Below the pieces are notes generated by a model that worked only from the letters and a program-made list of their open reading frames with translations, did not search any database and had not been told where the DNA came from. From assembly GCA_037447655.1 (NCBI GenBank), contig JBBHKE010001038.1:1-64000 (forward strand): a DNA stretch of 64,000 bases, given 5' to 3'. Made by a program: the position numbers and the translations under genes. This document shows, one piece after another, positions 3,073 through 56,908 of this stretch; position 1 is the stretch's first letter; every line of letters starts with the position of its first letter. Source of the DNA: Zygnema cylindricum. Taxonomy: Eukaryota > Streptophyta > Zygnematophyceae > Zygnematales > Zygnemataceae.

Positions 3073-4705
3073 AGTGAACCTTCCCAAGTTGGGAAAAAAC
3101 TACATTGTGGGAATATTGTTGTGGATAATGATATTGAACTTCCTGTCACGACATCGGCAGGTCCCGTAATTCCGGGATTTCCACATACTTTGGAGCAATT
3201 ACTGAGTCAGGTAAGGGAATGATTTGACGATTACTGATTTGACTTTTTAATGATTTTACGATTTTACTTTTTGATGATTTGACTTTTTGACGATTTTACT
3301 TCTCGAAGATTTTGCTTTTTGATGATCTTACTCTTTTACTTTTTGATGATTTTACGATTTTACTTTCTGATGATTTGACGATTTTACTTTTTGATGATTT
3401 GACTTCTTGACGATGTTACTTCTCGACGATTTTGCTTTTTGATGATTTCACGATTTTATTTTTTTGCTGGTTTTCGATTCGACGAAATTCTCGACTTGAC
3501 TATTAATGATTTGACCGTGTGTCACCAAATATTAACGATTTGACAGTCGATGATTGATTGCCAGGTGGCAGATTCTCATAGGACAGTCACTCTCGTCGCG
3601 GCTACGAGTCGTTATCGGGAACTTGTGGTCGATTTCAGTTGTCGAATGACTTCTCTCGGAGTCACAAATCTCATTATTGCCGCAATGGACGAGGATTTTT
3701 ATCGGTATGCTTTTACTCAAGGATTACCAGTATACTTTGAAGGAGGTCCTTTTTTTCCTTCGGAAAATTTGACAACTCACGAGGCAATTTCGGATTGTGA
3801 TCACGGATCTCCGTGTTTCCATCATTATCGTCAGGTAATTTCGGGATTGATTTATTTGGGTTTTTATCTTTTAATCAAATTTTTAAAACAACAAGTACTC
3901 GAATAATTGAAAAAGAACGGGCAATCAGAAAGTGTATAAAGAAACCTCATCCACGGTAGTTTGTTTTTTTATCACCTGCCTTTTTTTTGGGCAGAGTTTT
4001 TTTTTTGGGGCAGAGTTTTGTTTTCTTCGGGGCAGAGTCTTTGATTCTTGGAAGGAAATAACTGGGATGCAGGTGAAATTTTACGCGATTTTGCAAATTT
4101 TGAAACGAAATTATTCGGTCGTGTGGAGTGACGTGGATATAGTGTGGTTGAGAAATCCTCTCTCTCACTTACAAACTTTTTGTGAAGGTTGTGTCCTCCT
4201 CCAAAGCTCTCTCTCAGATTCCTCCCTTGCTCCCAATGGTCCACCGGATATTTCCGATTCCGGAGGACTTATATTCGCTCGTCCACTATCCCTTATAATC
4301 GATTTATTCGAGGATGTTTTGCACATTTTAGCGAGAAAAATTACCACGACAAGGTACGCAAAAAACGATCATCCTTTGTACTCGATCGGTTGTGGAGAGA
4401 GAGGAGAAAATCGAGCTCCGGCATTAGATGAATGTCAATTTAGAGAAAAATTGTCGGTGGTTTTTCTCCCGAGGGAAGAATATCGGACGGTCTCGAATGG
4501 AAGAGTTTGGAAAAGGAGAGATGTGATTGGAGAGTGTTTTCAAGCCGGATGTTTCGTCCTTCATAATAGTTTGAGGAGAGGAGGGACCGCAGTAAAAATG
4601 AGAAAATTGGAGGAAACAGATTTGTGGAGATTTCAAGCCGAACAACGAATGTGTCGACATAATTGGACCGCAAAATCGGACGCTTTTCAAGCTCTATCCA
4701 CGTGA
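3073..4705 (+). CDS. Nucleotide-diphospho-sugar transferase (PF03407/GT77-like), C-terminal exons
   Basis: Three exons join in phase 0: 3073-3210, 3565-3834 and about 3995-4705 (TGA), giving 372 residues. The second exon encodes VTLVAATSRYRELVVDFSCR and IIAAMDEDFYRYAF, which match the N-terminal strand/helix pattern of the PF03407 fold. The third contains the DxD-type metal/nucleotide-sugar motif in NYSVVWSDVDIVWLRNPL and a later DHPLYSIGCG stretch. Family members are Golgi type II proteins that transfer sugars to cell-wall polymers or glycoproteins; the donor and acceptor are unknown here. The acceptor at 3995 was chosen because it is the only upstream AG that keeps phase 0; a second in-phase AG at 4073 would remove FDSWKEITGMQ, which looks conserved. 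The membrane anchor and start codon should lie upstream and were not identified. Introns carry minisatellites. Confidence 0.8.
3222..3545 (+). repeat. Intronic minisatellite, GATGATTTGACGATTTTACT type
   Basis: The intron between the 3073 and 3565 exons is almost entirely diverged repeats of TTTTGATGATTTGACGATTT units, interleaved with TTGACGATTTTACTTCTCGA. No coding frame is seen. Confidence 0.85.
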
Positions 4706-23958: not shown

Positions 23959-24948
23959 TGTTGAAATCACTAGATTTAGGGGAGGTATTTTCTAGGATTT
24001 AAATTAAAATAAAAAGGAAAAGAAAAGCAGCCTGCCCCCACCTTCTCTCTCTGACCCCCACACTTGTTGTAGTCACTAAAGGAAAGAGTGGGCGGTGGTG
24101 CCATGGGTGCCTTAGCTCCATAGGCAGGGCTTAAGAGTGACCTAAGTCACTCTCAACGAAAAAGGTTGAGTCCGGCAAGACTCGATTCTCCGACCGGTAG
24201 GGCAAGGCATAGCCGTCAACCCTTAGAAGTCTGTCGTAGTAGTCCGTTAGGATACATACGGTTCGATAACTATTTAAAAATAGATAGACGACTAATCCGA
24301 TTAACGGAATTACAACTAGGATACATAGAAACTAGTTGGGGAATTTAGTGCGCGCAAAACAAATGTACCGGACATTTGTTTTGAACGGCTGGGAATTAGA
24401 GTCGACTTGGATCCGACGGCTCACATCATCGCCGAGATCCTGGAATGGCCGCTTTGGTGGTTTACGGATGTAACATAACCTGGCGACACGTGGCAATATG
24501 TCATTGGGACGCTGAATCCCAGGGAGCTTGAGGATAAGTCCGGAGGAGACAGACGTCCACTCCATGGCCTTGTCGTACACGGGCCGTACAAAAAGTACAT
24601 TGGCCATAGTACCTTTCTGTACTATACAGTCTTCTTATTGGTTCCGTACATCATTAAATAGGGGTTGTGAGAGGGTTTCGGACTTAGTGGATTGAGGAGG
24701 TAGCCGCCTCTCTCCCAACAAGCTTGTATAAATATTGGCTTCTTTGCCACTCAATAATTAATTGACTGGTTAGGCGTTTTCAGTGATTCTTTTTGCTGTG
24801 GACTCAGGGGAGTCCAAGTGGCATAGGGATGTAGTCAGATTATCTATCTATTTGCTAGGGTAGCAGTTGCTCTCGTTGAAAGTGGGTTAGTCAACAACTA
24901 CCTAGAGGCTTCCTCAATTTCGGTCCAAATGGAAGACACAGAATTGCA
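23959..24948 (+). repeat. 5' LTR of the copia element
   Basis: A 990-bp repeat, TG...CA. It has a TATAAATA box at 24727-24734 and ends after the ATG of gag (24929). No TGGTATCAGAGC-type primer-binding site follows it. Confidence 0.92.
24727..24734 (+). promoter_or_regulatory. LTR TATA box (TATAAATA)
   Basis: TATAAATA sits about 220 bp before the LTR end and is conserved in the 3' LTR at 30082-30089. It is a probable core promoter for the retrotransposon RNA. Confidence 0.65.
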
Positions 24949-25850
24949 AGTTATGGGCCCACCCTCTAGGGTGCCCATATTCAACGGATCTGGATTGATT
25001 TACTGGGAAGCTATGATGACAGGGGCATTATGTGAGAAACGATACTGGGGTATTGTTAGTGGACAAGTGAAACGTCCATCTCAAGGAACTCCACCAAGGT
25101 TTGGAGGAGTGAGGTTTTCTGCAGCAGGATATGCTCCAACGGATAATACATATGATGGGGACAGCAGTGTGTCCGAAAAGGGGAAAGGAAAGGAGACACC
25201 TCTCACTCCTATTGCCATGGCACCCGGAGCGGTGGCCGTGAAGACCGAGGAAAACGACATTCAGATGTGGGAGTACACCAATATGAATGCCAGGCACTTC
25301 ATTCTGAGGCACCTCACCCAAGCGTTGGCAGCTTCTCACCTTCAAATCTTCAAGGCCGAGGAGTTGTGGATGACCTTAGTGGAGATCTATACAGCTGGCA
25401 CCATTTAGGAGCTTCAGCTGGCTGAGCAAAGGCTGATTAGTTACACTTTCAAGGGAGGAAAGATGTTGGACTTTTGCACCGATCTCTCTTGTCTATACAT
25501 GGAGATGGAAACTGTCGGATGGACAAGCACTATGAAGATGAAAATTAACACTCTCATCATGAAGTTGCCGGAGGAGTATGAAAATATAGTGTACCGAGTG
25601 CAACAAATGGATGATAGTGATTGGAAGTGGAGCACCGTGCTTCGAATGATACTTGTACAGGAAAACACCATTGAGATCCGAAGAGGAGGAAAGAGGGTGC
25701 AAGCTCTAGCAGCCGGAACTGACCGATGGAGGAAGGATCCGAAGAAGCCGTACAACAACTTCAAAGGGGAAAAGGACCAATCTCGAGAACCGAGGACTCC
25801 AAAGGGCCTTTGTCATTTTTGCAAAAAAGTCGGGGCACTTCAAAGCTGAT
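24929..25850 (+). pseudogene. copia gag (broken)
   Basis: The frame opens MEDTELQVMG inside the LTR. It shows the gag-like segment FNGSGLIYWEAMMTGAL, is stopped by TAG at 25406-25408, and resumes in the same frame. A CHFC zinc-knuckle start is at about 25811, but an extra base at about 25830 throws the rest of the CCHC knuckle (GHFKADC in the next frame) out of frame. Gag packages the RNA into particles; this copy cannot make it whole. Confidence 0.85.
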
Positions 25851-25925
25851 TGCATCAAGCTATCGGAGCTGAGGCTTCAAGAAAATCTTGGAGGTGGTTC
25901 TTCCGGAGGGAAGAAGAAAGCACTT

Positions 25926-27290
25926 GTGGTCACACAAGTGAAAGGAGAGACCGAGGAGGACGAGTCCTCCGAGGAGGAGGATGGGGAGCTTTTTCTTCAC
26001 GAGAATATAGAGGAGAAGGAGATCCCTAGGAAACAGAAGTGTGCCCTTAGAGCCATTCGAGAAGCACCAAAGGAGGGATGGATAATCGACTCAGGTGCAT
26101 CCATGCATATGTGTCGTGACAAGCACCTCTTCACTAAGCTAAGAAAGATCCCTATTGTGGAAATAGAGTATGGGGATGGAAGAGTAGTTACCCCAGATCT
26201 AGTGGGATCGGTAGATCTAAAAGTCTTAGTGGAGGATAAGACTTCTATTCTCACCTTCTCAGATGTGCTCTACATTCCTCAGTTGAGTAAGAATCTTGTG
26301 TCTACTTCTGTATTAGATGACAAGGATTTTGATACCTTAACTACAAAGGGAGTCTTTACAGCTAAGTATGGAGATGAAGTCTACTTCACAGCAGATAAGG
26401 GTAACCAAGGAATGTTTAAGCTTAACCTGAGTAATGAAAAGAAAAGTGCTTACTATGGTGGTGTTCCGAGCTTGATGATCTGGCATAAGCGTTTGGGACA
26501 TGTGCATTTTGATATCCTGAGAGAAATGAAAAAACAGGGTGTAGTAGAGGGCATTCAGTTTGGGGATAATGAGATGATGGATGACTGTAGTGGCTGTGCC
26601 CAAGGTAAGGCTCACAGACTTCCCTTTCCCAAAACTGCCACATATAGAGGTGAGAAAGTACTAGATCTGGTCCACACAGATATGTGGGGACCATCAAGAG
26701 TGCCTTCGGCTGGGGGAAAGAGGTATATGTTGACAATTACTAATGATTGGTCCAGATATTCCAGAGTCTACTTCTTGAAAACAAAGTTTGAAACACCAAA
26801 ATACTTTAAAGAGTACAAAGCCTGGAGTGAGAAGTTGCACGGAACCCCCATTAAGAGAATAAGGAGTGATAATGGGGAAGAGTACGCCTCTAACAATTTT
26901 GAGTATTATTTCAGAGATGAGGGAGTTTAGTATCACAAAAATGTACCGAATAATCCAGAACAGAATGGGGTAGCTGAGAGGTTAAAACCGGACTTTCGGA
27001 GATATTGTGTGCAGCATGTTAGCAGATAAGAAAATAGGGAGAAGATTTTGGGTAGAGGCCATGAATTGTGCTAACTACATTAAGAATAGAGTCCTCACCA
27101 GAGTTGTTAAAGGAATGACCCCTTATGAGAGATGGGTTGGAAAGAAATCGAATGTTTCCCACTTGAAAGTATTCGGTAGTCAAGTTTACAGTCTTGACAC
27201 AAATAAGAAAAACAGGAAACAAGATGCTAAAGGGAAACCGGATATTTTGTGGGATATGATGAGGATGTCAAGGGATATGGAGTCTATGAC
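25926..27290 (+). pseudogene. copia protease and integrase (broken)
   Basis: The protease active site is IIDSGASMHMC (Asp at about 26088). The integrase zinc region WHKRLGHVHF...CSGCAQGKAH spans about 26475-26620. Core acidic residues lie in VHTDMWGPS, RSDNGEEY and the Glu of NGVAER. A TAG at 26928 and shifts at about 26990 and 27255 break the polyprotein. The linker after integrase continues to about 27660 in another frame. Confidence 0.9.
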
Positions 27291-27689
27291 TTAGCTAAAC
27301 AAGATATCATTCTGGTAAAGCATCTAGTTGTCATGGATGAATGGAAGTCTTTTGATCCCTTCAAATACACTAAGAAAATCAGAATCAGTTTTGAGTCCGA
27401 GAGTGAGGAGGACTTAGATAATCCCAGAAGGGACACTAGTGAAAACATGATTGGAGATTCAATGGAGATAAAAGATGGGGGAGATATACCAGAATCCCCT
27501 CATATTCCTAAACTCTTTGAGGAAAGAGAGGAAGAGGAGTCAAAACCGGTTCCCATGGATAGGGGAGCTGATGAGACAGTTCGGAGGAATCCAAGACTTC
27601 CCTCCAATCCAGCTTCGGACTTTGAGGGAGAACGGAGAAGCAGCAAAAGGTTTTAAGGAAAATAGGTTGCTTGCAAGGTAACAAAACTT

Positions 27690-29294
27690 TCTCATCCAGA
27701 TGAGCCTCAATCATACTCGGAGGCAATGGACAGTCTGGAGAAAGAAAGGTGGGTCAGAGCCATAAATGGTGAGATGGCTTCAATCATGGAGGCAAATACT
27801 TGGGAGCTGGTGGACTGTCCACCAGATAGAAAACCCATTGGGTGTAAATGGGTATTTAAAGTGAAACTGAATCCAAATAACACCATTGAGAGATTTAAGG
27901 CTCGGCTGGTGGCAAAAGGGTTCACTCAAAAAGAGGGGATAGATTATAAGGAGACCTTTGCTCCGGTAGTTTGATTCCCATCTGTAAGGATTCTCCTTAG
28001 TCTAGCAGCAGCGGAAGACATGGAAATTCACCAGATGGATATCAAAATCGCCTTCCTCAATGGTGAACAAGAGGAAGAAATCTTCATGCGGCAACCAGAA
28101 GGTTTTGTAGAGGAAGGAGAGGAAAGCAAAGTCTGCAGATTTATAAAGTCCTTATATGGAGTGAAGCAGGCCCCCAGATAATGGAATAAGAAACTAGATG
28201 AGTTTCCTACCAGTCTGGGGTATATTCGGATCAGTTCTGACCATTCTATTTATATGTTTGAGGATGAGAATGGTGTGATTTTTATTGCAATTAATGTGGA
28301 TGATTTGTTGGTATAGAGTAAGTCTATAGAGAAGATAATTACGCTAAAGAAAGATATGGGAAGCAGATTTGATATGAAGGATTTAGGGGAGGCAAAATAT
28401 ATTCTGGGAATTCAAATGGAAAGAGATAGGGGGAAGAGGATCATCAGACTTACTCAGAAAGAGGCTATAGGAAATATGCTGGAGAAATTTCAGATTGAGA
28501 ATGCAAACAGTTGTACCACTCCCATGGACTTGAAGAAAGTAAGTGATGGAAGTGTAGAAGGAGGAGTGATAATGTTAGATGATCAGATGAGTCCAGAAGA
28601 AAAGCAGTTTATGAAGGCTATTCCTTACAAACATGCTGTAGGAAGTTTGATTTACTTTATGAGTTGTACTAGGCTTGACATAGCTGCAGCAGTTGGGGTC
28701 CTCAGTAGGGGTCTTAATGATCCTAGAAAGAGAGACTGGGAGGCAGCCAAGAGAGTAATGAGATACGTGGTGGGAACTAGGGATCTATGGTTGCATTTGG
28801 GAGGGGAGCACACAGACATCACTACTTGGAGTGATGCCAGTTATGGGGATGCACCTATGAGAAGATGCACTTCTGGGTTTGTATTGTATGTGGGGGAAGG
28901 TGATTGTTGTTGGAGCAGCAAGCAACAAAAGGTTGTTGCTCAGTCCACTATGGAGGCTGAGTACATGGCCTCTTGTTCTGCTGTGAAAGAGCTAATGTGG
29001 GTGAAGTCCTTGTTACAAGAATTGGGGTACATGAAGAAGGGAGTACATGAAGTGTTTTGTGATAATCAGGCTGCAATTGCAATTGCAGCCAATCCAAAAC
29101 ATCATTTTATAGCTAAGCATATGGATATAAGATTGAGCTTTGTGAGGGAAAAGGTGGAAAATAAAATTGTGGATTTGGTGTATAGGAGTGATGGTGAAAT
29201 GGTGGTTGATATGATGACAAAGCCTGTACCATCTCCCAAGCTAAAGTACTGTAGAGAAAAATGTGGATTAAAAGAGAAATTAAAATTAGACTAG
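27690..29294 (+). pseudogene. copia reverse transcriptase and RNase H (broken)
   Basis: RT begins near WELVDCPPDRKPIGCKWVFK and reaches IDYKETFAPVV, then TGA (27972). Further stops fall at about 28180 and 28314. The catalytic box reads NVDDLLV instead of the usual YVDD. RNase H is open from 28356 to 29294, with TWSDASYG, STMEAEYMASC and CDNQAAI. Some stops look like CAA or CGA turned to TAA or TGA, as expected from C-to-T decay of methylated repeats. Confidence 0.9.
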
Positions 29295-40214: not shown

Positions 40215-41365
40215 TTAGTAGCTTGTGAAGCTCCATTGACGAATCTCGTGGTTATCGGAACCGGAACTTGTTGAAGCAGTAAAACCAATATATGCCGATG
40301 TTACTTGACTGCAAGTGACACATTGTGTTGGTCGTAAGAGACTACAAAGTGCCCTTTTGTACGTCACCAAAGGTTGACGAGGTTTGTTAACCGAGGAACC
40401 AAAATAGACCTTCCAAGTGGTCGAGGTATCGTTGTAGTCCACCCAAGCATATAACGTTTTGTTAAAACGGTTGAGAGTTGTAGAAACTGTAGGAACAATA
40501 GAAGCCGAACGAAAGGATTCACGAAACGCGACATTGCGTTGACGAAGTTCACCAACATTGAAGAAGGTGTCAAAGGCTACAGCCACACTTCCGGGTAGAG
40601 GACTTCCACTATAACTATACCCAAGTGTCTCCCCAGCTCCATTGCCGAACCTTTTCAAGTTCGCATTGGACGCCAAAAGTAAAAAGGTCAAACCTTCTCC
40701 GATTTCCGGTGCATAATTACGTATCCTAAAACTGAATGATGTCTGGAATGAAGCTCCTTGACAGGTTTTTGCAGCATTCGTGCGTAATAGTTCGATCGGA
40801 GAAGAATACAATGTTTGTCCATGCTGCATGGCCAAGGGCGGGGTGAGACGCAACCATGGAGACCATAGGGATGCATCGTTGAGATAAATAATTGGTGAGT
40901 TTCTTTGGAAAGATATAAAGGTGAAATTGGTAGGCGGTTTAGGTTTCACTTGTGGAGGTGGAGCTCGTGGTGGTGGTGAGGGTGGTGGGGATGGAGGGGT
41001 TGGAGGGGGTGGAAGGGGTGGAGAGGGTGGAGGGGGTGGTGAAGGTCGTGGTGGTGGCGAGGGTGGTGGAGTTGGTAGGCGTGGTAGGGGGGGTAAAGAA
41101 ATGGGTGGATATTTGTTTTCCATAATTGGTGGAAAGATAACTGGTGGTGGACGCATTTCAGGAGGTATCACTAGTGGAGGTGGAGGTGGTGAGAATTTTG
41201 GTTGAGGTGGTGGTTTTCCATTCGGTGGTGGGCTAACGATGTTTGGAGGTGGAGACACTCTTTTAGTGGGTGGCGGTGGAAGGATAACCGTTGGCGGTGG
41301 AGGAATTTTAGAAGGAAATAGATTTTGTGGCGGTGGTATCTTCCGCGGCGATGGGGGAAAAAGAC
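40215..41365 (-). CDS. Last exon: proline-rich hinge and L-type lectin domain
   Basis: After an ACGCAATAG acceptor the exon gives 383 residues. Residues 1-146 (41365-40929) are a hinge of PPPP, SPPP, PPSPPP and KPPP blocks, extensin-like and a likely hydroxyproline O-glycosylation substrate. Residues 147-383 (40928-40218) follow the legume lectin pattern: NFTFISF, YLNDASL, LRLTPPL, TLYSSPIEL, ASFQTSFSFRIRN, GEGLTFLLLASN, SVAVAFDTFFN, YAWVDYND, AYIGFTASTSS, HEIRQWSFTSY. The conserved metal-ligand pair, usually VEFDT, reads VAFDT, and the usual NHVGID ligands after it are not seen, so classical Ca/Mn-dependent sugar binding is doubtful. The protein stops right after the lectin fold. Confidence 0.9.
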
Positions 41366-44300
41366 CTATTGCGTCAGCAAGCAATTTTTGAAATCAATAA
41401 CTTTTCAGATTGATTTTAATTCTTGGAAAGGCTAAGCATATACATGAAGCACATTCGAAATTAAAATTGCAAAGGAAACAATAAAATCTTTGATGTAACT
41501 GGCTCAGACTGAACGCATTCGAAAACTAGAAACACAATAGCCATCAGTTTTGGTTAAATCCGACAATTTTATTTTAAGTGTTTAATTTCATCAACAGCAA
41601 TGTCGCACAAGTTTTGTCAAAGCAACCTACCCCAACCATCTCAAAATCCCAATCTCAAAAAAAAATTATTCTAACCAAAAGCCGAGGTATAATTAGGAAT
41701 ATCAAAATAAACAACATCGTCCAAAAATTCTATCTTTGTGAAAGACATACCCCATAGAAAGTCTCAGATGTTCGAGGACTTACCGACGCATGCAAACTCA
41801 TTATCCAAATTATTGTAGCCTTTGTCACAAGTGCATTTAAATGTATTTTCATTCGTACGATTAGAGCATATTCCGCGTCCTCCACAAGGTCCTCCCACTT
41901 GTGTGGCGTCGCAAAATGCTTCACATTCTTCTTTTGTACGCTGATCTCTGGGAGGGCATTTGGACGGAAGGTTGTTACCAAGCAAGCAATTGGTCATCAA
42001 CTCATTGCATGCTGGATGTCCATTGACAGAAGCCACTGGTCCTGTCAAATAGTTGCTTGTAACGTTCCTGATACGTCCAAACAAACATGAAAAAACAGAC
42101 AGTTAGAGATCCAAGAGAACATTGCAAAGTTTTTCTCTGGCCTGAGGGAGTCAAAAAAAACTTAAGCAGGCAGGAGGAAAAATAAAAAGGAAAACAAGAC
42201 TTGAACAAGGATTAGGTTATCATATCCAAATGATAGTTGCTAATTGAAATTCTTGTTTAAAAGACACTCTCTAGTTAAACCCTTGAAAAACCCTTGTAAA
42301 TTGCCTGCCGTGTTCAGCAGTATTGTGAGAAAATATAGTGTCCATCACTAGTTATCAGTTATCCTCTTTCCATTCACTGGCAAAGATTAAGATGATATTT
42401 GCCATACTTTACGGCTTCTTTATACAAGATAATAAAATGTAAACAGTGCAAAATAACGAATCGACTAATACACCATCCAGGTTATGAACAAAAGTTCTTT
42501 TGTCTGAACCTCGAGACAGGAGGCAGTATTTGTTAGCAGAAAAAGCAGAATTCAGAATAAAATTTAGAGCTGCGATAGTAGTTAAGTAAAAATTAGAGTA
42601 GTTTATAAACATGAAGTAATCCAATTAGGTTCATTGTCTTTGGTCTTAACATCAACAAAACTGTATTGTAGATTATTGACCTCACAACTATTGGTGATAA
42701 TGTTTCTATCTTTGTAATTTAAAAGCAACAACCAACATGTTCAGATAGTGCACCAACTATTCGGCGCGCATCTTAAATAAACTTCTCGCCCACATTTGGT
42801 GTAGATTTATCACAGAGAATCCAGCTTCGGCCAAATCTCCAAAATGTCACCGTACGGTTCCAATGCCTCGTACACAATGTTTTTTGTTCAATGTCTACGT
42901 GATATGTAAAATCTTTGTACATATGTGAGGGGATATCTTCGGTGACGTGGACGGCCGCGGCCGTCGGCAGTCAGACCAATACGCGTGGTTTTAATAGTCC
43001 GCGGCGGTACGGAAGCCGTACCATCGTGGCGAGTCTAGTATATGGGCCAGGTAGCGCGATTAGCGGTACGGCGCCGTTCAGTTTCAGGTACATATGGTAC
43101 GGAAGTACCCGACGGCCATGTCCATGCTCCCCTAATTCCGTTTTGGGGACTGGCGGGTTCAAATGTATCCGTCGCCCGGACAAAACGCCAAGTCGGGGAA
43201 AAATCGACCGATTTCGTCGGCCAATACCATAGGAGTTATTCGACTCGAAAGGAAAAAAGGCTTCGGAGATACTCAAAGGGTATTAGGTGTTATTTATGCT
43301 TAATTTTAGCTGGCTCGTCTCTAGTATTACTATGTGAAATAGAGCCATAAGGAAACATGTAATTTCCAGAGATGTATGAACACGCGAAGAATACAAAAAA
43401 TGTGAAGCTCCAAAGAAAAATATCCGGGCTTAAAACTTTGGACAAATATCAACCGATTGATAGACTTCTGATACACAAGAAATAGAAGCGCATATTGGTC
43501 ATTCTATCTATTGGTCATGAAAGTTGACATTCCTACACTGTAGTGGAAGTATTTGATAAATGAAGAAACACTCATGGTCCCCCGCTCATGGTAAGGCAAA
43601 AATTCCAAAGTAAAACATGCTCAGAAATAGATGAGATAGACATTGTTAAAAACGTTTTTTTATAGAGAACGAAATTGGCATGGAGACTTTCAATAAACGA
43701 GACACTTAAAACTTAATTGTCCTTACAAGTATTGGAGGAGCTTCAATTTAGTGATGGACTTTGGAATGCCTCCACTCAATTGGTTGTCGGTTATAAGACT
43801 ATCACGCCACCCAAACCAACCACGCCAACATCCATTATTAGTGATGAAAAATTAGGTTTTGGATAAAATACATAATCCACAACTTCAGCAAACGTTTCAA
43901 ACTAAACGACACTGATGTGGGGATATTCATTCTACAAAAAAAAACATCGTTGAATGTGCCTTACACGATTACAAGAGACTTCAGTTGACCGATACATTCT
44001 GGAATTCTTCCACTCAGTTGGTTTCCAGACAAAGATCTGTGATATTCCCCATTCCCACCGCCTACCTATCCTCATCAGTAGAAATCGAGTATTGCAAAAA
44101 AAAAAATTATGGAATCTAGAGTAGAAACAATTCCGTACAAATTCAAAAGTTACAATAAATAGTTAAACAAAATTAAATAATTCAATTCCAATTATATAGT
44201 TAATTCAAAAACAAATAGTTAAAAAGGCAGCAACGACCTCAAGCAACTGAGTACCGATAGCGAGAAAAAGACAAGTGAAATAAATTGAGAGAATTTCAAT

Positions 44301-47300
44301 GGATAACCCATTTTTAATGCGGCTTACAGGGAATTGAGGAGAGTCAGTTGACAAAAGAAATCTGAGAAGCTTCCACTCAATTGGTTGTAACCTAAACTTC
44401 TGTAAAACCCCACATCCTAGAGGAGAAAAACATTGAAGATCTTCTCCCAAGCATATCAAGATAAAATAATTGACATAATCATGATAAGATTACTACAATT
44501 TTTTTCTCAAAAACATTATAGCACATGTTGTCAACCGAAAAGAACAACGGCAAAAAATGACCTTATTTTTGGATGTTGTTAACGACTTTAGGTGGATTCA
44601 TTATTTATGAATTTCCTTAACAAATAAAATTGACATAAACCTTTTTGATAAACAAAAAATTAACAAGTTAATTCCTTACAGAAACTTGAGTGACGAGTTC
44701 AACTCACGGAAAGAATTTGGAATGCTTCCACTCAATTGGTTCATAGTAAGTGACCTGTGGCACTTTCCCCACCCCCCTCTCAATTCCTTTAAACCAGCGC
44801 AAATCACTGATTTCGAGTTTAACATAGTCAAGTCTTGAATGACTATTTATTCTCTTTACTCTTTATTTTTTTCTTTTACAAAGAATTTAACTACGATAAC
44901 GCATTTCATTTAGATAAAACCATTTCCTTTTCAGCCCCTCGACACCGTCAAACCAGAGCGGATTGTAGGTTAAGGAAAAATAAATAATGAATAATTAAAT
45001 GATTACAGTTAAACATTATTCTCATTTTAGTAGAGAATGGAACTGAGGTGAAAAATTCACTGAGGTAAAAAAGTTTATAAGGTAAACCATAATTCTTTCA
45101 GTGTGCCTTACAAGAGTAGGAGGGAACTCAATTGACCGAAGGACTCCGGAATGGTCCCATTCAACTGATTGCCCGAAAGATCTCTGTCATACTCCCTCTC
45201 TCTCTCTCTCTCCCCCACACCATCAATTCCCGCGTTAGTTAGCAATTAACGCAGTTTTTACGATAAAGTATAAAGAACAGATGTAAATGATTACATAGAT
45301 GTCGATAATTTATAAAACTAATGTAAACATTTTGAATAGATAATACACTTATGCTTTTTACCATCAACTTGCTAGAAATATTGATATTACCGGATTTAAA
45401 TGTGTAGAAATAAAATGAAATTTAAACTTTTCAAGCAATAGTGAACACTTTCGGTAAACAATAACATGACCACATATTGTTCCTTACAAAGTTCTGAGAG
45501 ACTTCAATTGACCAATGGAGTCTGGAATGGGTCCACTCAATTGATTTATTCGAAGTTCTCTGTCACAAACACCAAATCTCCCATATTAACTCATGATAGG
45601 CAAATGGAGAAAAGATCAAGAATGTTTTTATGGAGAGTAAAATTAAGTGAAAAAGTACAATACGCCATGGGATGCTTCTTACAATTTCTGAATAGACTCC
45701 ATTTGACCGATAGAATTTGGGATGCTTCCACTCAATTGGTTGTTGTAAGCAGACCTGTGACACCCGTCACACCATCTTTCCCATGTAAACAACTAAGCAG
45801 AAGATACTTCATTTAATATACTACGAACAATTAGAATGGGATTCATTCGATATACTGAACACTTTTGATCAAGAAAATCACAGTCTTGATGATAAAAAAT
45901 TAATTAGCGCTTTACGAATACAATTTGAGAACATTCACTCTAATATAGAATAGCACTCTTATACATGGGAGACTAACAAGTCATGTTTTTTGTCGTTTAC
46001 CACCATTCGAGGGACGTCAATTGACCGATGGAATCTGGAATCTCTCCACTCAACTGGTTGTTATATAGATGGCTGTGACACCCTCTCACCACCAATTCCC
46101 CCCACCCAAGATACAAATTAAAGCACATTAGAGGAATCTGTATAAGGTATCATAAATTGGTAAACAAACTTTCTATCATCTGATGGGTCTTACAACTGTT
46201 GGAGAGACGTCAATTGACCGATGGAGTCGGGAATGCTTCCGGTCAATGCGTTGTTGTGAAGATATCTGTGGACACCCACAACACCAAACTCCACTTCATC
46301 GGTACGGATCGAGGAAACCAACGTAATGCGTGATGGAGAATACTTATCAAAATTAGTAGATACACCACAATAGGGAACAAAGCTGGCACGGAGACTTCTA
46401 TTTGAAAAAATAAATTTTGTCTAATGTGACTTACAAGAATTGCAGGAACCTCAATTCACCGATGGACTCTGGAATGGGTCCACTCAATTGGTTGGAAGAT
46501 AGACGTCTGCCTTGCCCCCACAAGCCCTTTTAGAATGGTAACATAAAGTAGGATGAATCGAAGTATAAGTGATTAGGTAGTTTATAAAATTAGAGTAGAT
46601 ACCGACCACATTCATACTTATGGTGATTCCCAACATTGCTACGACGTCGAGTGACACAATTTGATGAAATATAGCCAATTTCGTACATTAAAAAAGTACA
46701 TGACAGATTGTCACACATGAACAGGACACGCAGTATGTTAGTTCATTTGCTGAAGTTACTTTGGTCTATCTAATGTGACGTTTTGAAACGTCCGGCGAAG
46801 TTACGGGTATCGTTTCCTTAACTTCAACAAATTATTCTCATCAACTTTGTGCTGCCTTCCGTCCGTCGTTGTTAAACATGGGTTGAAAGAACAGATTCCT
46901 TACAGCTGGGCCAGTATAGATACTTTTTTATACAGTATTGGTTCCACAATGTAAAAATAACAAAAAGCACATAGAAAATGTAGGTTAAAATCGGGAATTA
47001 CCGCAAACATGCGCAAAGCTAGTTGAAATTATCAATAATTAGGACAACAACACCATTCACCTCCTCCGTTCCCTCCCAAAAGCATTTTCTTTTAATATGA
47101 TAAACAAAAACCCATCATTTTAAGGTGTCATACAAGTATAAAAGGGACTTCAATTGACCGATGGAATCTGGAATGCGTCCCGTCAAGTAAAGTTCACCGA
47201 GGTGCCTGTAATAACATCCGTTCCCACCCCCGAAACCCTTTTTAGTTGGTATAAATCAGAATTTTTCTTGAGCCCCCTTTCTCGAATCCACCTCCCAAAA

Positions 47301-49501
47301 ATAATTATTACACTCTACCAAAAAAAACAATACTACCTCTTTTATCTAATTTTGACAGTTGAGAAACTTGGAGAAAATTTGTCTTATGTTTACTCACAAG
47401 CGTGTCAATTTAGTGAGGTTGCCAATCTCCGGCGCAATAATCCCATGAAGAGACGAGAAATACCTATTTTTTCCACCCATACCTCGATAATTGAGTTTCT
47501 ATGAAGAAAACATGAAAATGATCACACATACACACAAGTTTGATTGGCAGAAGCACTGAAGAAAAAATCCCAATGGAATTAATAAGAGAACTTATGCGCA
47601 ATTAAAGTTATCCTCTTGTTTTACGTCATTTCTCGCATATAAATACGTTGTCACTGTGCAAACATGAAGCTGATTGGTTCACGAATCAGGAAAGAAATTC
47701 TGTGAAGTACACCTCACTCAATGTATATGCCAGAAAATGCAATGGAAAATATCCTATGTAATCTCTTGGTGCGTCTACGTTTACTGAAGAGCAACCTAAA
47801 CGCATTTTACTGTACTGCCCTTTAGTTTTACTAACGTTCATTAGCTGGTATTCACTGTTATTGAAACTCCAAATAGCATAGTAAAAATACAGGTTCAAAA
47901 CTGACCATTAGGTGTCCGTATAAACATGTAAGGAATGAAAAGTTGTTTTTTCGCTTTTTTCATGTTTTAAAATGGTTAGTTTTGTCAAGTTTTCAGTGAC
48001 AATGCTAACACCGCAATTCCTACAGCGAAGGCGTCGACCAATTCACATTTCCGAATCTCATGTTGCCTTTTAAAATTTTTCTTGAATTAATGTGGCTTTG
48101 ATAGGGAAAAGCATATTAACTGGTAAGTAACGTGTGTCATTCCAAAACCACCATTTGATCATCCAATATTGGCCATACAACAGTTGACGTTTCCCAGAGA
48201 TGTGAAGAACGTGTTTCTGTTTCACACAAAACTTAGTCGCCCATAATCTGATCTATACTCAACGCCGTCATTTTAATTTTTGTCTTCTTCTCGAGTAGAG
48301 CCTTCCGAGGCTCAAGTCTCACCTGTCGTTTGGCTTTATTTCCCTTTGTCTTCAGTTTCACTCTAGTCTCTTTTCATAATGCTCATTCTTCAAAGTTCCT
48401 TTGGTCAACTTATGAACAAGAATAGCTCGTAAATTTGCAAATTGCCATAAATAATTTTTCCTTTATAAAAATATTAACTTTGCGCAAATATTTTGTAATC
48501 TTATCTGTTGGGGTGGCAATGACCAGGAAGGCTCAAGAATGCTCCAACCAATGTCCAACAATGTCGAACAGCTCCCGACCATGTCAGTCAAAGGTCCAAG
48601 AATGTCCGACTATGCATACAATGCAATTCCATGCCTTGTACTTATACCCAATCTAAATGCCCAATAATATCTTGCAATGTCATCAATGTCCCAAAATGTC
48701 AGAAAATGCCCGGCAATGTTGATGCTGATGTCTAGTAAGGTCAAGCGATGTAAGACAAAAAGAAAAATGCGCATTAAGGATACCTGGAAAATCACAGAAA
48801 TTTACATCTAGAATGTACAGTAATGTCCAATGAGAAGAAGAACCACACAAGTAAGAAAACACGCCGCAATGTCCACAAAATTCCGGATGCTCATCAAGGT
48901 CATCCAGGCCCAGTAGTGTGCACTTCCAAATGTACATTTATATCCAGAATGCGACAAATGTCCCACAGCGTGCACCAATGTCCACCGATGCGTGACAATG
49001 CGAAGAAACATTGTTGGCAAAGCTTCATGAAAACATTTCGATGAAATTGGCAATGTAAGGCGGCAGGCAACAGGGTCCACAAAGTTTGGGATACCGGGGA
49101 AGGACCAGTGACGCACATTTTAGAAGGGATAATCGGATCTGATCCGGACCGGAAACACGTCGATGATTGACCCTGATTTTGCTGGCATGACGCCAGCCGC
49201 CTGATTTGTCTGATCTTCAAAAAAAAACGACGATAACGAACAATTTATGTTCCCTCGACATTGATAATCAGGCACGTGTCGAGTGACATCGCACGTGTGA
49301 CAGCACATTTGGCCAGTGGGAGGGAAGGAACACCCCGCACGTGTGAGTGGCAAAGGAGGGATGGGGAATGCTGGGAAGGAGGAGAGAGAGGGAAGACGTA
49401 CGGTCGGAGGGGTCCATCGCGACAGTGGCGGCGCTGGCGCACACGAGCGCCACGTGGCACATGGCCAGAAGCGTCGCCGCGGTGGCCGTCGTGGTCGCCA
49501 T
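40215..49501 (-). CDS. Secreted LRR / EGF-like / Pro-rich / L-type lectin protein
   Basis: Exons from 3' to 5': 40215-41365 (TAA), 41784-42067, 43727-43798, 43965-44036, 44328-44399, 44680-44754, 45112-45183, 45488-45559, 45683-45754, 46001-46072, 46194-46265, 46435-46506, 47134-47205, 47398-47463, and a probable signal-peptide exon 49402-49501. From 47463 to the stop the frame holds through every GT-AG junction (765 residues). The order is about 13 LRRs, a Cys-rich EGF-like module, a ~146-residue proline-rich hinge and a ~237-residue legume-lectin-like domain at the C terminus. No membrane segment or kinase follows. It is predicted to be an extracellular or wall protein. In plants LRR-extensins join LRR to Pro-rich tails, and lectin receptor kinases put the lectin first and a kinase last; this arrangement matches neither. 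The phase mismatch between the signal exon (phase 1) and 47463 (needs phase 2) shows that at least one exon, probably the N-terminal LRR cap, is missing from my model. Confidence 0.85.
41784..42067 (-). CDS. Exon: last LRR and Cys-rich EGF-like module
   Basis: The exon enters in phase 2 and leaves in phase 1. It starts NVTSNYLTGPVAS, completing the last LRR, then HPACNELMTNCLLGN (LRR C-cap-like Cys pair). The Cys-rich part follows with KCPPRDQRTKEECEAFC, GGPCGGRGICSN and FKCTCDKGYNN...FACVG. The CxxxGxC...CxCxxGY spacing is that of an EGF-like fold. It links the LRR solenoid to the proline-rich hinge. Confidence 0.85.
42068..43726 (-). other. Largest well-defined intron of the LRR-lectin gene
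   Basis: It contains a GC-richer block at 42940-43210 (GGCCGCGGCCG, several GTACGG motifs) unlike its surroundings, perhaps an old transposon. No exon was supported there. Confidence 0.5.
43727..47463 (-). CDS. LRR exon array (12 symmetric exons)
   Basis: Twelve consecutive exons begin with the last base of a codon and end after the second (symmetric phase). Ten are exactly 72 bp, one is 75 bp (44680-44754) and the first is 66 bp (47398-47463). Each encodes one plant-type extracellular LRR of the form xLxxNQLSGxIPxSIGQLxSLxxL, for example YLHNNALTGSIPDSIGQL and DLSGNQLNGTIPESFGQL. The exons are very alike in sequence. This is the mark of repeated exon duplication. The intron lengths range from about 120 bp to about 630 bp. 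The array gives the concave ligand-binding face of the protein. Confidence 0.9.
47464..49401 (-). other. Long 5' intron(s) of the LRR-lectin gene; missing cap exon
   Basis: At least one exon (phase 1 in, phase 2 out) should lie here. A Cys-containing open stretch at about 49050-49220 on the minus strand is a candidate, but I see no LRR-cap signature. 48530-48990 is a degenerate AATGTCCAACAATGTC-type repeat. Confidence 0.4.
48530..48990 (+). repeat. Degenerate ~10-bp repeat (CAATGTCC)
   Basis: CAATGTCCAACAATGTCGAA, AATGTCCGAC, CATCAATGTCCC and similar units recur with drift over about 450 bp. It explains the many short frames on both strands. Confidence 0.65.
49402..49501 (-). CDS. Probable signal-peptide exon of the LRR-lectin gene
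   Basis: The ATG at 49501 opens MATTTATAATLLAMCHVALV followed by CASAATVAMDPSD: a short Ala/Thr n-region, a Leu/Ala/Val core and small residues before a possible cleavage after CASA or ATVA. A GTACGT donor follows at 49401. It lies on the right strand 1.9 kb upstream of the first LRR exon. Linking it to that gene is inference, and the phases show an intervening exon is still missing. A long opposite-strand frame covers the same DNA but looks like a shadow. Confidence 0.5.
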
Positions 49502-55540: not shown

Positions 55541-55966
55541 TATCCTCTCTCTCTCGTTCTCTCTCCCTCGTTCTCCCTCTCTCTCTCTCTCTCCTTCCTC
55601 TTTTTTCTTTCCCACATACGTATAACTCGCTTACTCTAATATTTATTCATGTCCCTTTTTCCTCTTCTTTTCTCCCCTTTGTTCTTTAACCACCACCTTC
55701 CAGGTCCCCGACGTCGTTCTATCCCTCTTTTTATCTCTTTCTCTCTCCTTCTCTCTCCTTCTCTCCTTCCCCTCTCTTCTTTTCCTCTCTCTTTCACTCT
55801 CTATCTCTTCTCACTATTCTTCCTCTCCTTTCTCCTCGCTGTCATCTCATAAATCCCAAACAAACTGCCTGTTATTTTATTTTTTTGTATTCTTTGTTCC
55901 TCACTTCGCAAAGTTGTTATCTTGTGAGTTGTCACTCTTGTTGACTTCTATTTTTTTTTTTTTTTC
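55541..55966. other. 5' flank of the Myb gene, CT-rich
   Basis: CT-rich simple sequence at 55545-55600 and 55730-55810. No second gene was supported. The 18-bp minisatellite starts just beyond, so it lies within 450 bp of the presumed start codon. Confidence 0.5.
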
Positions 55967-56908
55967 GTTAGGTCTTGTTTAAAAATTAGGTCTTGTTTCA
56001 AAATTAGGTCTTGTTTCAAAGTTAGGTCTTGTTTAAAAACTAGGTCTTGTTTAAAAATTAGGTCTTGTTTCAAAATTAGGTCTTGTTTCAAAATTAGGTC
56101 TTGTTTCAAAATTAGGTCTTGTTTCAAAGTTAGGTCTTCTTTCAAAATTAGGTCTTGTTTCAAAATTAGGTCTTGTTTCAAAATTAGGTCTTGTTTCAAA
56201 GTTAGGTCTTGTTTCAAAATTAGGTCTTGTTTCAAAATTAGGTCTTGTTTCAAAATTAGGTCTTGTTTCAAAGTTACGTCTTGTTTCAAAATTAGGTTAT
56301 GTTTCAAAGTTAGGTCTTGTTTCAAAATTAGGTCTTGTTTCAAAATTAGGTTATGTTTCAAAGTTAGGTTATGTTTCAAAGTTAGGTCTTGTTTCAAAAT
56401 TAGGTATTGTTTAAAAAATAGGTCTTGTTTAAAAATTAGGTCTTGTTTCAAAATTAGGTCCTGTTTCAAAATTAGGTCTTGTTTCAAAATTATGTCCTGT
56501 TTCAAAGTTAGGTCTTGTTTCAAAATTAGGTCTTATTTCAAAGTTAGGTCTTGTTTCAAAATTAGGTCTTGTTACAAAATTAGGTCTTGTTTCAAAATTA
56601 GGTCTTGTTTCAAAATTAGGTCTTGTTTCAAAGTTAGGTCTTGTTTCAAAATTAGGTCTTGTTTCAAAATTAGGTTATGTTTCAAAGTTAGGTTATGTTT
56701 CAAAGTTAGGTCTTGTTTCAAAATTAGGTATTGTTTAAAAAATAGGTATTGTTTAAAGATTAGGTCTTGTTTCAAAATTAGGTCCTGTTTCAAAATTAGG
56801 TCTTGTTTCAAAATTATGTCCTGTTTCAAAGTTAGGTCTTGTTTCAAAATTAGGTCTTGTTTCAAAATTAGGTCTTATTTAAAAGTTAGGCCTTGTTTCA
56901 AAATTCAG
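55967..56908 (+). repeat. 18-bp minisatellite with 324-bp higher-order unit
   Basis: GTCTTGTTTCAAAATTAG (18 bp) repeats about 52 times with point variants (GTTATG, GTCCTG, GTATTG, TTAAAAA). Because 18 is a multiple of 3, frames stay open on both strands (LKQDLI-type on minus, CFKIRS-type on plus). A variant string starting GGTTATGTTTCAAAGTTAGG at 56349 is repeated at 56673, exactly 324 bp (18 units) away, with the same order of variants after it. Confidence 0.95.

What the first reader, a model, noticed from the sequence alone, without database searches (positions are those of the whole stretch)
40215..49501. Secreted LRR, EGF-like, proline-rich and C-terminal L-type lectin protein
Seen: 14 exons in frame encode about 13 LRRs, a Cys-rich EGF-like module, an extensin-like proline hinge and a legume-lectin fold that ends the protein. 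Known: plant lectin receptor kinases carry the lectin at the N terminus with a membrane segment and kinase behind it, and LRR-extensins lack lectins. Inference: this is a soluble, wall-anchored pattern receptor, adhesive protein or co-receptor with two separate binding surfaces joined by a rod. I know of no family with this domain order.
Basis: partly seen in the sequence, partly recalled or inferred. Interest (0 to 1): 0.88.

Follow-up and report, generated by a model that had tools for sequence, protein, structure and literature searches.

The report
LRR-extensin-like protein ending in lectin
This gene encodes a protein laid out like plant cell-wall LRR-extensins (leucine-rich repeats, cysteine-rich hinge, proline-rich rod) but ending in a sugar-binding lectin fold; it is one of a small set inside a very large family in the same genome, and is probably a wall-bound sensor or adhesive.

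Summary
The architecture is real. On the minus strand, 14 exons (47463 to 40215, all internal edges AG|GT, phases matching) encode 12 LRRs, a 10-cysteine EGF-like hinge, a 146-residue linker that is 51% proline, and a legume-lectin domain that ends the protein (Pfam Lectin_legB 4e-30). No membrane helix or kinase was found.

It is not alone. The hinge has 150 scored matches in the same 353-Mb genome; 12 lie upstream of a lectin match, on the same strand (0.26 expected by chance). Four of those, besides the window, were read and have LRR, hinge, Pro-rich stretch and lectin. Four of seven fetched hinge loci without a lectin end instead in a short Pro-rich exon after the same phase-1 intron. A related lectin exon follows a nidogen-like domain.

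Best reading: an LRX-like secreted protein that gained a C-terminal lectin by phase-1 exon shuffling, acting as a wall-bound two-headed sensor or tether. Secretion, ligands and signalling are inferred. A 2024 Zygnema paper already reports Lectin_legB in 26 architectures, so I rate it a new variant of a known kind.

The parts
49402..49501 (-).
47398..47463 (-). LRR exon 1 (66 bp; an alternative acceptor would start it at 47498)
47134..47205 (-). LRR exon 2 (72 bp)
46435..46506 (-). LRR exon 3 (72 bp)
46194..46265 (-). LRR exon 4 (72 bp)
46001..46072 (-). LRR exon 5 (72 bp)
45683..45754 (-). LRR exon 6 (72 bp)
45488..45559 (-). LRR exon 7 (72 bp)
45112..45183 (-). LRR exon 8 (72 bp)
44680..44754 (-). 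LRR exon 9 (75 bp)
44328..44399 (-). LRR exon 10 (72 bp)
43965..44036 (-). LRR exon 11 (72 bp)
43727..43798 (-). LRR exon 12 (72 bp)
41784..42067 (-). Hinge exon (284 bp): last half LRR and 10-Cys EGF-like module; leaves in phase 1
40929..41365 (-). Pro-rich linker (first part of the last exon), 146 residues with the codon split at the junction, 75 Pro, 7 Ser-Pro(3+) motifs
40215..40928 (-). L-type (legume) lectin domain and TAA stop (rest of the last exon)

Best explanation
One gene for a secreted, kinase-less protein of LRR-extensin layout whose Pro-rich rod ends in an L-type lectin. Shown: LRR array, 10-Cys hinge, Pro-rich linker and lectin lie in one frame in that order; paralogs keep order and phases; hinge and lectin differ mostly at silent sites between the window and its paralogs. 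Inferred: the rod is hydroxylated and glycosylated and sits in the wall; the LRR head binds a protein or peptide partner, as LRX proteins bind RALF; the lectin head binds a wall or mucilage glycan, so the protein senses or ties two ligands across the wall. The layout arose by exon shuffling at the phase-1 intron behind the hinge, where a Pro-rich end exon and a Pro-rich-plus-lectin exon alternate between family members.
For: Gene model and Pfam. 12 of 150 scored hinge matches lie upstream of a lectin match, same strand, within 15 kb; 0.26 expected; the only other pairings are the two cross pairs of the inverted C1498 copies. Besides the window, C1311 (6 LRR exons), C1498 plus copy (5), C1498 minus copy (1 seen) and C2146 (2 seen) were read. 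dN/dS window-paralog: lectin 0.19 and 0.23, hinge 0.17 where computable. Blastn similarity of the window to C1498 and C1311 falls on exons. Pro-rich end exon with conserved stop behind the same phase-1 intron in L033-L036. LRX layout: PMC7357788, passages; an LRX1-like protein in the Penium secretome: PMC6027541, passages.
Against: First exon and signal peptide unresolved. No transcript found. Hinge of window versus C1311: silent sites saturated, ratio not computable; C1311 versus C1498 hinge 0.55 and lectin 0.30, so constraint among the younger copies is weaker. The metal-site Glu is absent and loop-A Asp is Glu in the window, so sugar binding is doubtful. No LRX chain among PDB matches of the hinge profile. 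Seven of the 12 pairs have 5.7-10.3 kb between hinge and lectin and were not read.
Confidence: 0.6

Rival explanations
1. A structural or adhesive glycoprotein of wall, mucilage or mating surfaces without signalling role: both heads bind matrix partners and the rod spaces them.
For: No membrane or kinase part; Pro-rich rod and lectin suit adhesion; other lectin genes here carry matrix-type modules, NIDO and F5/8C.
Against: A 12-repeat LRR array of the receptor type (best PDB sequence matches GSO1, FLS2, MIK2) suggests specific protein or peptide binding; repeats also match by composition, so this is weak.
Confidence: 0.25
2. The visible exons are the ectodomain of a receptor kinase whose membrane and kinase exons lie downstream.
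For: Lectin receptor kinases exist in streptophytes (P0001; PMC11096116, passages).
Against: An in-frame stop follows the lectin in the window, C1311 and C1498. No scored kinase match lies within 85 kb of any of 150 hinges or 34 kb of any of 83 lectins; that search scored 132 of 659 kinase candidates.
Confidence: 0.05
3. Two neighbouring genes, an LRR-hinge gene and a Pro-rich-lectin gene, read as one.
For: No transcript evidence; the Pro-rich-lectin exon also occurs behind other modules.
Against: Same order, phases and 284-bp hinge exon in paralogs, phase-1 intron between hinge and Pro-rich exon.
Confidence: 0.05
4. A decaying copy: a pseudogene of an active family.
For: The LRR exon of 75 bp, Asp-to-Glu in the lectin and the unresolved start; some family members hold stops.
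Against: 764 residues without a stop over 14 exons; dN/dS near 0.2.
Confidence: 0.05

Closest known systems
LRR-extensins (LRX/PEX) of land plants
   Same: LRR domain, Cys-rich linker, C-terminal region with Ser-Pro(n) motifs, extracellular, no kinase (layout from PMC7357788, passages)
   Different: Ends in a lectin, not in the extensin region; EGF-like 10-Cys hinge; linker is 146 residues with 7 Ser-Pro(3+) motifs and one Tyr; no relation of the hinge to PDB chains of LRX detected
L-type lectin receptor kinases
   Same: Lectin_legB domain in an extracellular protein
   Different: There the lectin is N-terminal with membrane segment and kinase behind it (PMC11096116, passages); here it is C-terminal, without either
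Lectin_legB combination architectures of Zygnema
   Same: Lectin_legB joined to other domains, 26 architectures reported (PMC11096116, passages)
   Different: The passages do not say whether LRR plus Lectin_legB is among them; supplements could not be read
EGF-lectin combinations of algae and bryophytes
   Same: EGF-like module beside a plant lectin domain (PMC6362431, section 12 part 1)
   Different: The lectins named there are GNA and ricin B, not legume-type

Membership tests
LRR-extensin (LRX) | LRR domain followed by a Cys-rich linker and a Pro-rich region | tested here: met
LRR-extensin (LRX) | C-terminal extensin domain that ends the protein | tested here: not met
   The Pro-rich stretch is followed by a lectin in the same exon
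LRR-extensin (LRX) | Cys-rich linker homologous to that of LRX | tested here: inconclusive
   Hinge profile against the PDB up to E 10 lists only two rhamnose-binding lectins; that LRX chains are in the PDB is recalled
LRR-extensin (LRX) | Signal peptide and N-terminal domain before the LRRs | tested here: inconclusive
   5' end unresolved
LRR-extensin (LRX) | RALF binding and wall insolubility | not testable with these tools
   -
L-type lectin receptor kinase | Lectin_legB domain | tested here: met
L-type lectin receptor kinase | Membrane segment and kinase behind the lectin | tested here: not met
   Stop codon after the lectin, no hydrophobic helix, no kinase match near
Legume-type lectin | Legume-lectin fold | tested here: met
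   Model pLDDT 75, best PDB match pea lectin at TM 0.78
Legume-type lectin | Canonical metal and sugar site residues (positions recalled) | tested here: not met
   Glu of VAVEFDT absent in 27 of 27 genome rows; loop-A Asp present in 25 of 27, Glu in the window
LRR / 10-Cys hinge / Pro-rich family of this genome | Hinge exon with 10 invariant Cys, entered in LRR phase, left in phase 1 into a Pro-rich exon | tested here: met
   10 Cys invariant in 9 of 9 aligned members; exits in phase 1

The most novel reading that the evidence does not exclude
A probable close algal relative of land plants carries 150 or more LRR / EGF-like / Pro-rich genes, a diversified kinase-less recognition repertoire of the wall; in about 12 of them a lectin head was added by phase-1 exon shuffling, giving two-headed sensors that couple a protein- or peptide-binding LRR with a polysaccharide-binding lectin over a Hyp-rich rod. 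It would be an LRX-like system that grew beside, and not out of, receptor kinases.
Probability: 0.25. Interest if true: 0.75.

Novelty: new variant of a known kind. Interest (0 to 1): 0.5.

Why it matters
LRX proteins link the state of the wall to receptor signalling in land plants. An LRX-like layout with a lectin as its far end, inside a family with at least 150 hinge matches in what is probably a zygnematophyte, would show how the sister group of land plants built wall sensing or recognition from shuffled secreted modules, and gives a concrete case (one intron, one phase) of how such proteins exchange their ends.

Tried and rejected
Receptor-kinase reading: set aside because a stop follows the lectin and no scored kinase match lies near (one search was a first check with 44 of the 117 kinase hits).

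Relatives elsewhere: the lectin region gave 6 proteins among 1630 candidates, best P0001, a two-lectin receptor kinase from a transcriptome; the hinge region gave none among 7 candidates; a profile of three models gave 4432 matches among 7981 scored candidates, and none of the 120 listed carries PF00139 in its precomputed domains. This does not prove absence.

N terminus: translated comparison of 47.1-53.0 kb with the 5' side of C1311 found no shared exon; a genome search with the 5' DNA did not complete.

Structure: the hinge folded alone is useless (pLDDT 45). A guess of PKD or DUF11 domains in L016 got no Pfam match; PAN-like exons seen by eye got a Pfam match in one of four ORFs scanned (L014; none for L009, L010, L026).

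Organism: 352.8 Mb, a Copia element in the window and a NIDO domain beside a lectin fit Zygnema cf. cylindricum (359.8 Mb, 29.8% Copia, NIDO in filamentous Zygnema; PMC11096116, passages). This is inference. The assembled Closterium strains whose sizes I saw in PMC10407611 run from 438 to 975 Mb (passages).

Literature: no paper joining LRR, EGF-like and legume lectin in Zygnematophyceae came up in the searches. Papers seen as passages only: PMC11096116, PMC10834447, PMC10407611, PMC7357788, PMC6027541; PMC6362431 as passages and part 1 of section 12; all others as search listings. No supplement was read.
Full report
Observation. The gene lies on the minus strand. Reading the region and its open frames and joining exons at their splice sites gave 14 exons from 47463 down to 40215: 12 LRR exons (ten of 72 bp, one of 66, one of 75), a hinge exon of 284 bp, and one exon with Pro-rich linker, lectin domain and stop codon. 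Internal edges are AG|GT, and the LRR exons enter and leave in one phase. Pfam finds LRR_1, LRR_8 and Lectin_legB above cut-off, EGF models only below. A repeat profile, built mainly from these repeats, finds 11 places in 11 kb; 10 have AG and GT exactly at the exon edges and the 11th is the 75-bp exon. As a control, 28 AG-72nt-GT windows exist on that strand of the 11 kb, 15 of them open in this phase.

One gene? The genome that holds the window (352.8 Mb, unnamed) has 83 matches of PF00139; 32 of them, the window's included, lie in stretches that I fetched. In the first 20 stretches fetched, one (C1498) showed hinge and LRR matches upstream of the lectin; the other 19 did not. C1311 and a second, inverted C1498 copy (94-95% identical to the first) have the same. 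C2146, fetched after the hinge search, has two LRR exons, hinge and lectin within 4.1 kb. LRR exons seen: 6 in C1311, 5 in the C1498 plus copy, 1 in the minus copy, 2 in C2146. In the three models built (window, C1311, C1498 plus copy) the hinge exon is 284 bp each time and the hinge-to-lectin intron is phase 1. dN/dS between window and paralogs is 0.19 and 0.23 for the lectin and 0.17 for the hinge against C1498; against C1311 the hinge is saturated at silent sites. Between C1311 and C1498, the younger pair, it is 0.30 for the lectin and 0.55 for the hinge, a weaker constraint. Blastn matches of the window to C1498 and C1311 fall on exons.

Family size. The 94-residue hinge gave 150 scored matches out of 455 candidates, the weakest at E 4e-23. 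Twelve lie upstream of a lectin match on the same strand within 15 kb, where uniform placement predicts 0.26; the only two other pairings within 20 kb are the cross pairs of the inverted C1498 copies. The twelve are related genes, not independent events. Of seven fetched hinge loci without a lectin match near (L033-L039), four (L033-L036) have a short Pro-rich exon with a conserved stop behind the same phase-1 intron; L038 with L040 has a longer repetitive Pro-rich stretch whose exons I did not resolve; L037 and L039 are unsettled. Five of the seven show 72-bp LRR exons with a score over 30 in the flank on the near side that was held, plus L037 with four; L038 shows none there (L033, L034, L035, L036, L037, L039 positive, L038 not, thus six of seven). 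All 10 hinge Cys are invariant in 9 of 9 aligned members. No scored kinase match (117 of them) lies within 85 kb of a hinge or 34 kb of a lectin.

Shuffling. A tree of 26 genome lectins and the two of P0001 puts window, C1311, both C1498 copies, C260 and C2406 in one clade (100/99), with C260 and C2406 closer to C1311 and C1498 than the window is (99/94); the root is by midpoint and C2146 and the seven unread loci are not in it. C260 has a Pro-rich-lectin exon, but no LRR or hinge match upstream; a nidogen-like domain (NIDO 3.8e-12) lies about 2.9 kb upstream on the same strand. Four of four ORFs chosen upstream of more distant lectins (L009, L012, L022, L026) match F5/8 type C domains. In 10 of 11 other lectin loci a candidate acceptor with the window's phase lies just before the lectin; in three of these (L011, L022, L025) an AG of another phase lies close as well, and L018 has none. 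This fits phase-1 exon shuffling; it is inferred from phases.

The lectin. The AlphaFold model (pLDDT 75, seven sequences) matches legume lectins, best a pea-genus lectin at TM 0.78. None of 27 genome rows has the metal-site Glu of VAVEFDT; the loop-A Asp is kept in 25 of 27, is Asn in L026 and Glu in the window (the roles of these residues are recalled). The fold is sure, sugar binding is not.

Mechanism. The layout is that of LRR-extensins: LRR domain, Cys-rich linker, and an extensin region that anchors the protein in the wall (PMC7357788, passages). An LRX1-like protein was found in the secretome of Penium, a zygnematophyte (PMC6027541, passages). I hold the window protein to be an LRX-like wall protein with an added lectin end that works as a two-headed sensor or tether. 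Shown: anatomy, family, constraint. Inferred: secretion, wall anchoring, LRR ligand, glycan ligand, signalling. Membership in LRX is not claimed: the protein does not end in an extensin region, and relation of the hinge to LRX was not detected.

Novelty. The Zygnema genome paper says Lectin_legB occurs there with other domains in 26 architectures, often lineage-specific (PMC11096116, passages). If, as size, Copia and NIDO suggest, the window comes from that genus, this gene may be among them. What I had not expected is the size of the hinge family and the exchange of 3' ends at one intron.

Noticed in passing
G000, 150 places, e.g. L033-L039: The EGF-like hinge module is a very large family in this genome (150 scored of 455 candidates), mostly without a lectin match nearby; four of seven fetched loci end in a short Pro-rich exon.
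   Followed up: partly
L016 5235-8850 (G000 C260): A nidogen-like (NIDO) domain lies upstream of a Pro-rich-lectin exon whose lectin is 59% identical to the window's: a different N-terminal part with a closely related C-terminal module.
   Followed up: partly
L009, L012, L022, L026: F5/8 type C domains (Pfam) lie upstream of C-terminal lectin exons; PAN-like exons were seen by eye in several loci, with a Pfam match only in L014 of four scanned.
   Followed up: partly
G000 C1498:24084-42000 (L028, L029): Two copies of the LRR-hinge-lectin gene face each other as inverted repeats of 94-95% identity; could be a real palindromic duplication or an assembly effect.
   Followed up: no
window 24929-29294 (+): Copia-type retroelement: Pol_BBD, gag_pre-integrase and RVT_2 domains in separate open frames. 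Described only.
   Followed up: no
window 3932-4705 (+): Open frame with a Nucleotid_trans domain (PF03407, 1.1e-13), the family that includes, as I recall, extensin arabinosyltransferases.
   Followed up: no
window 55948-56523 (-): Open frame made of an LKQDLI-type repeat, probably a minisatellite and not a gene.
   Followed up: no
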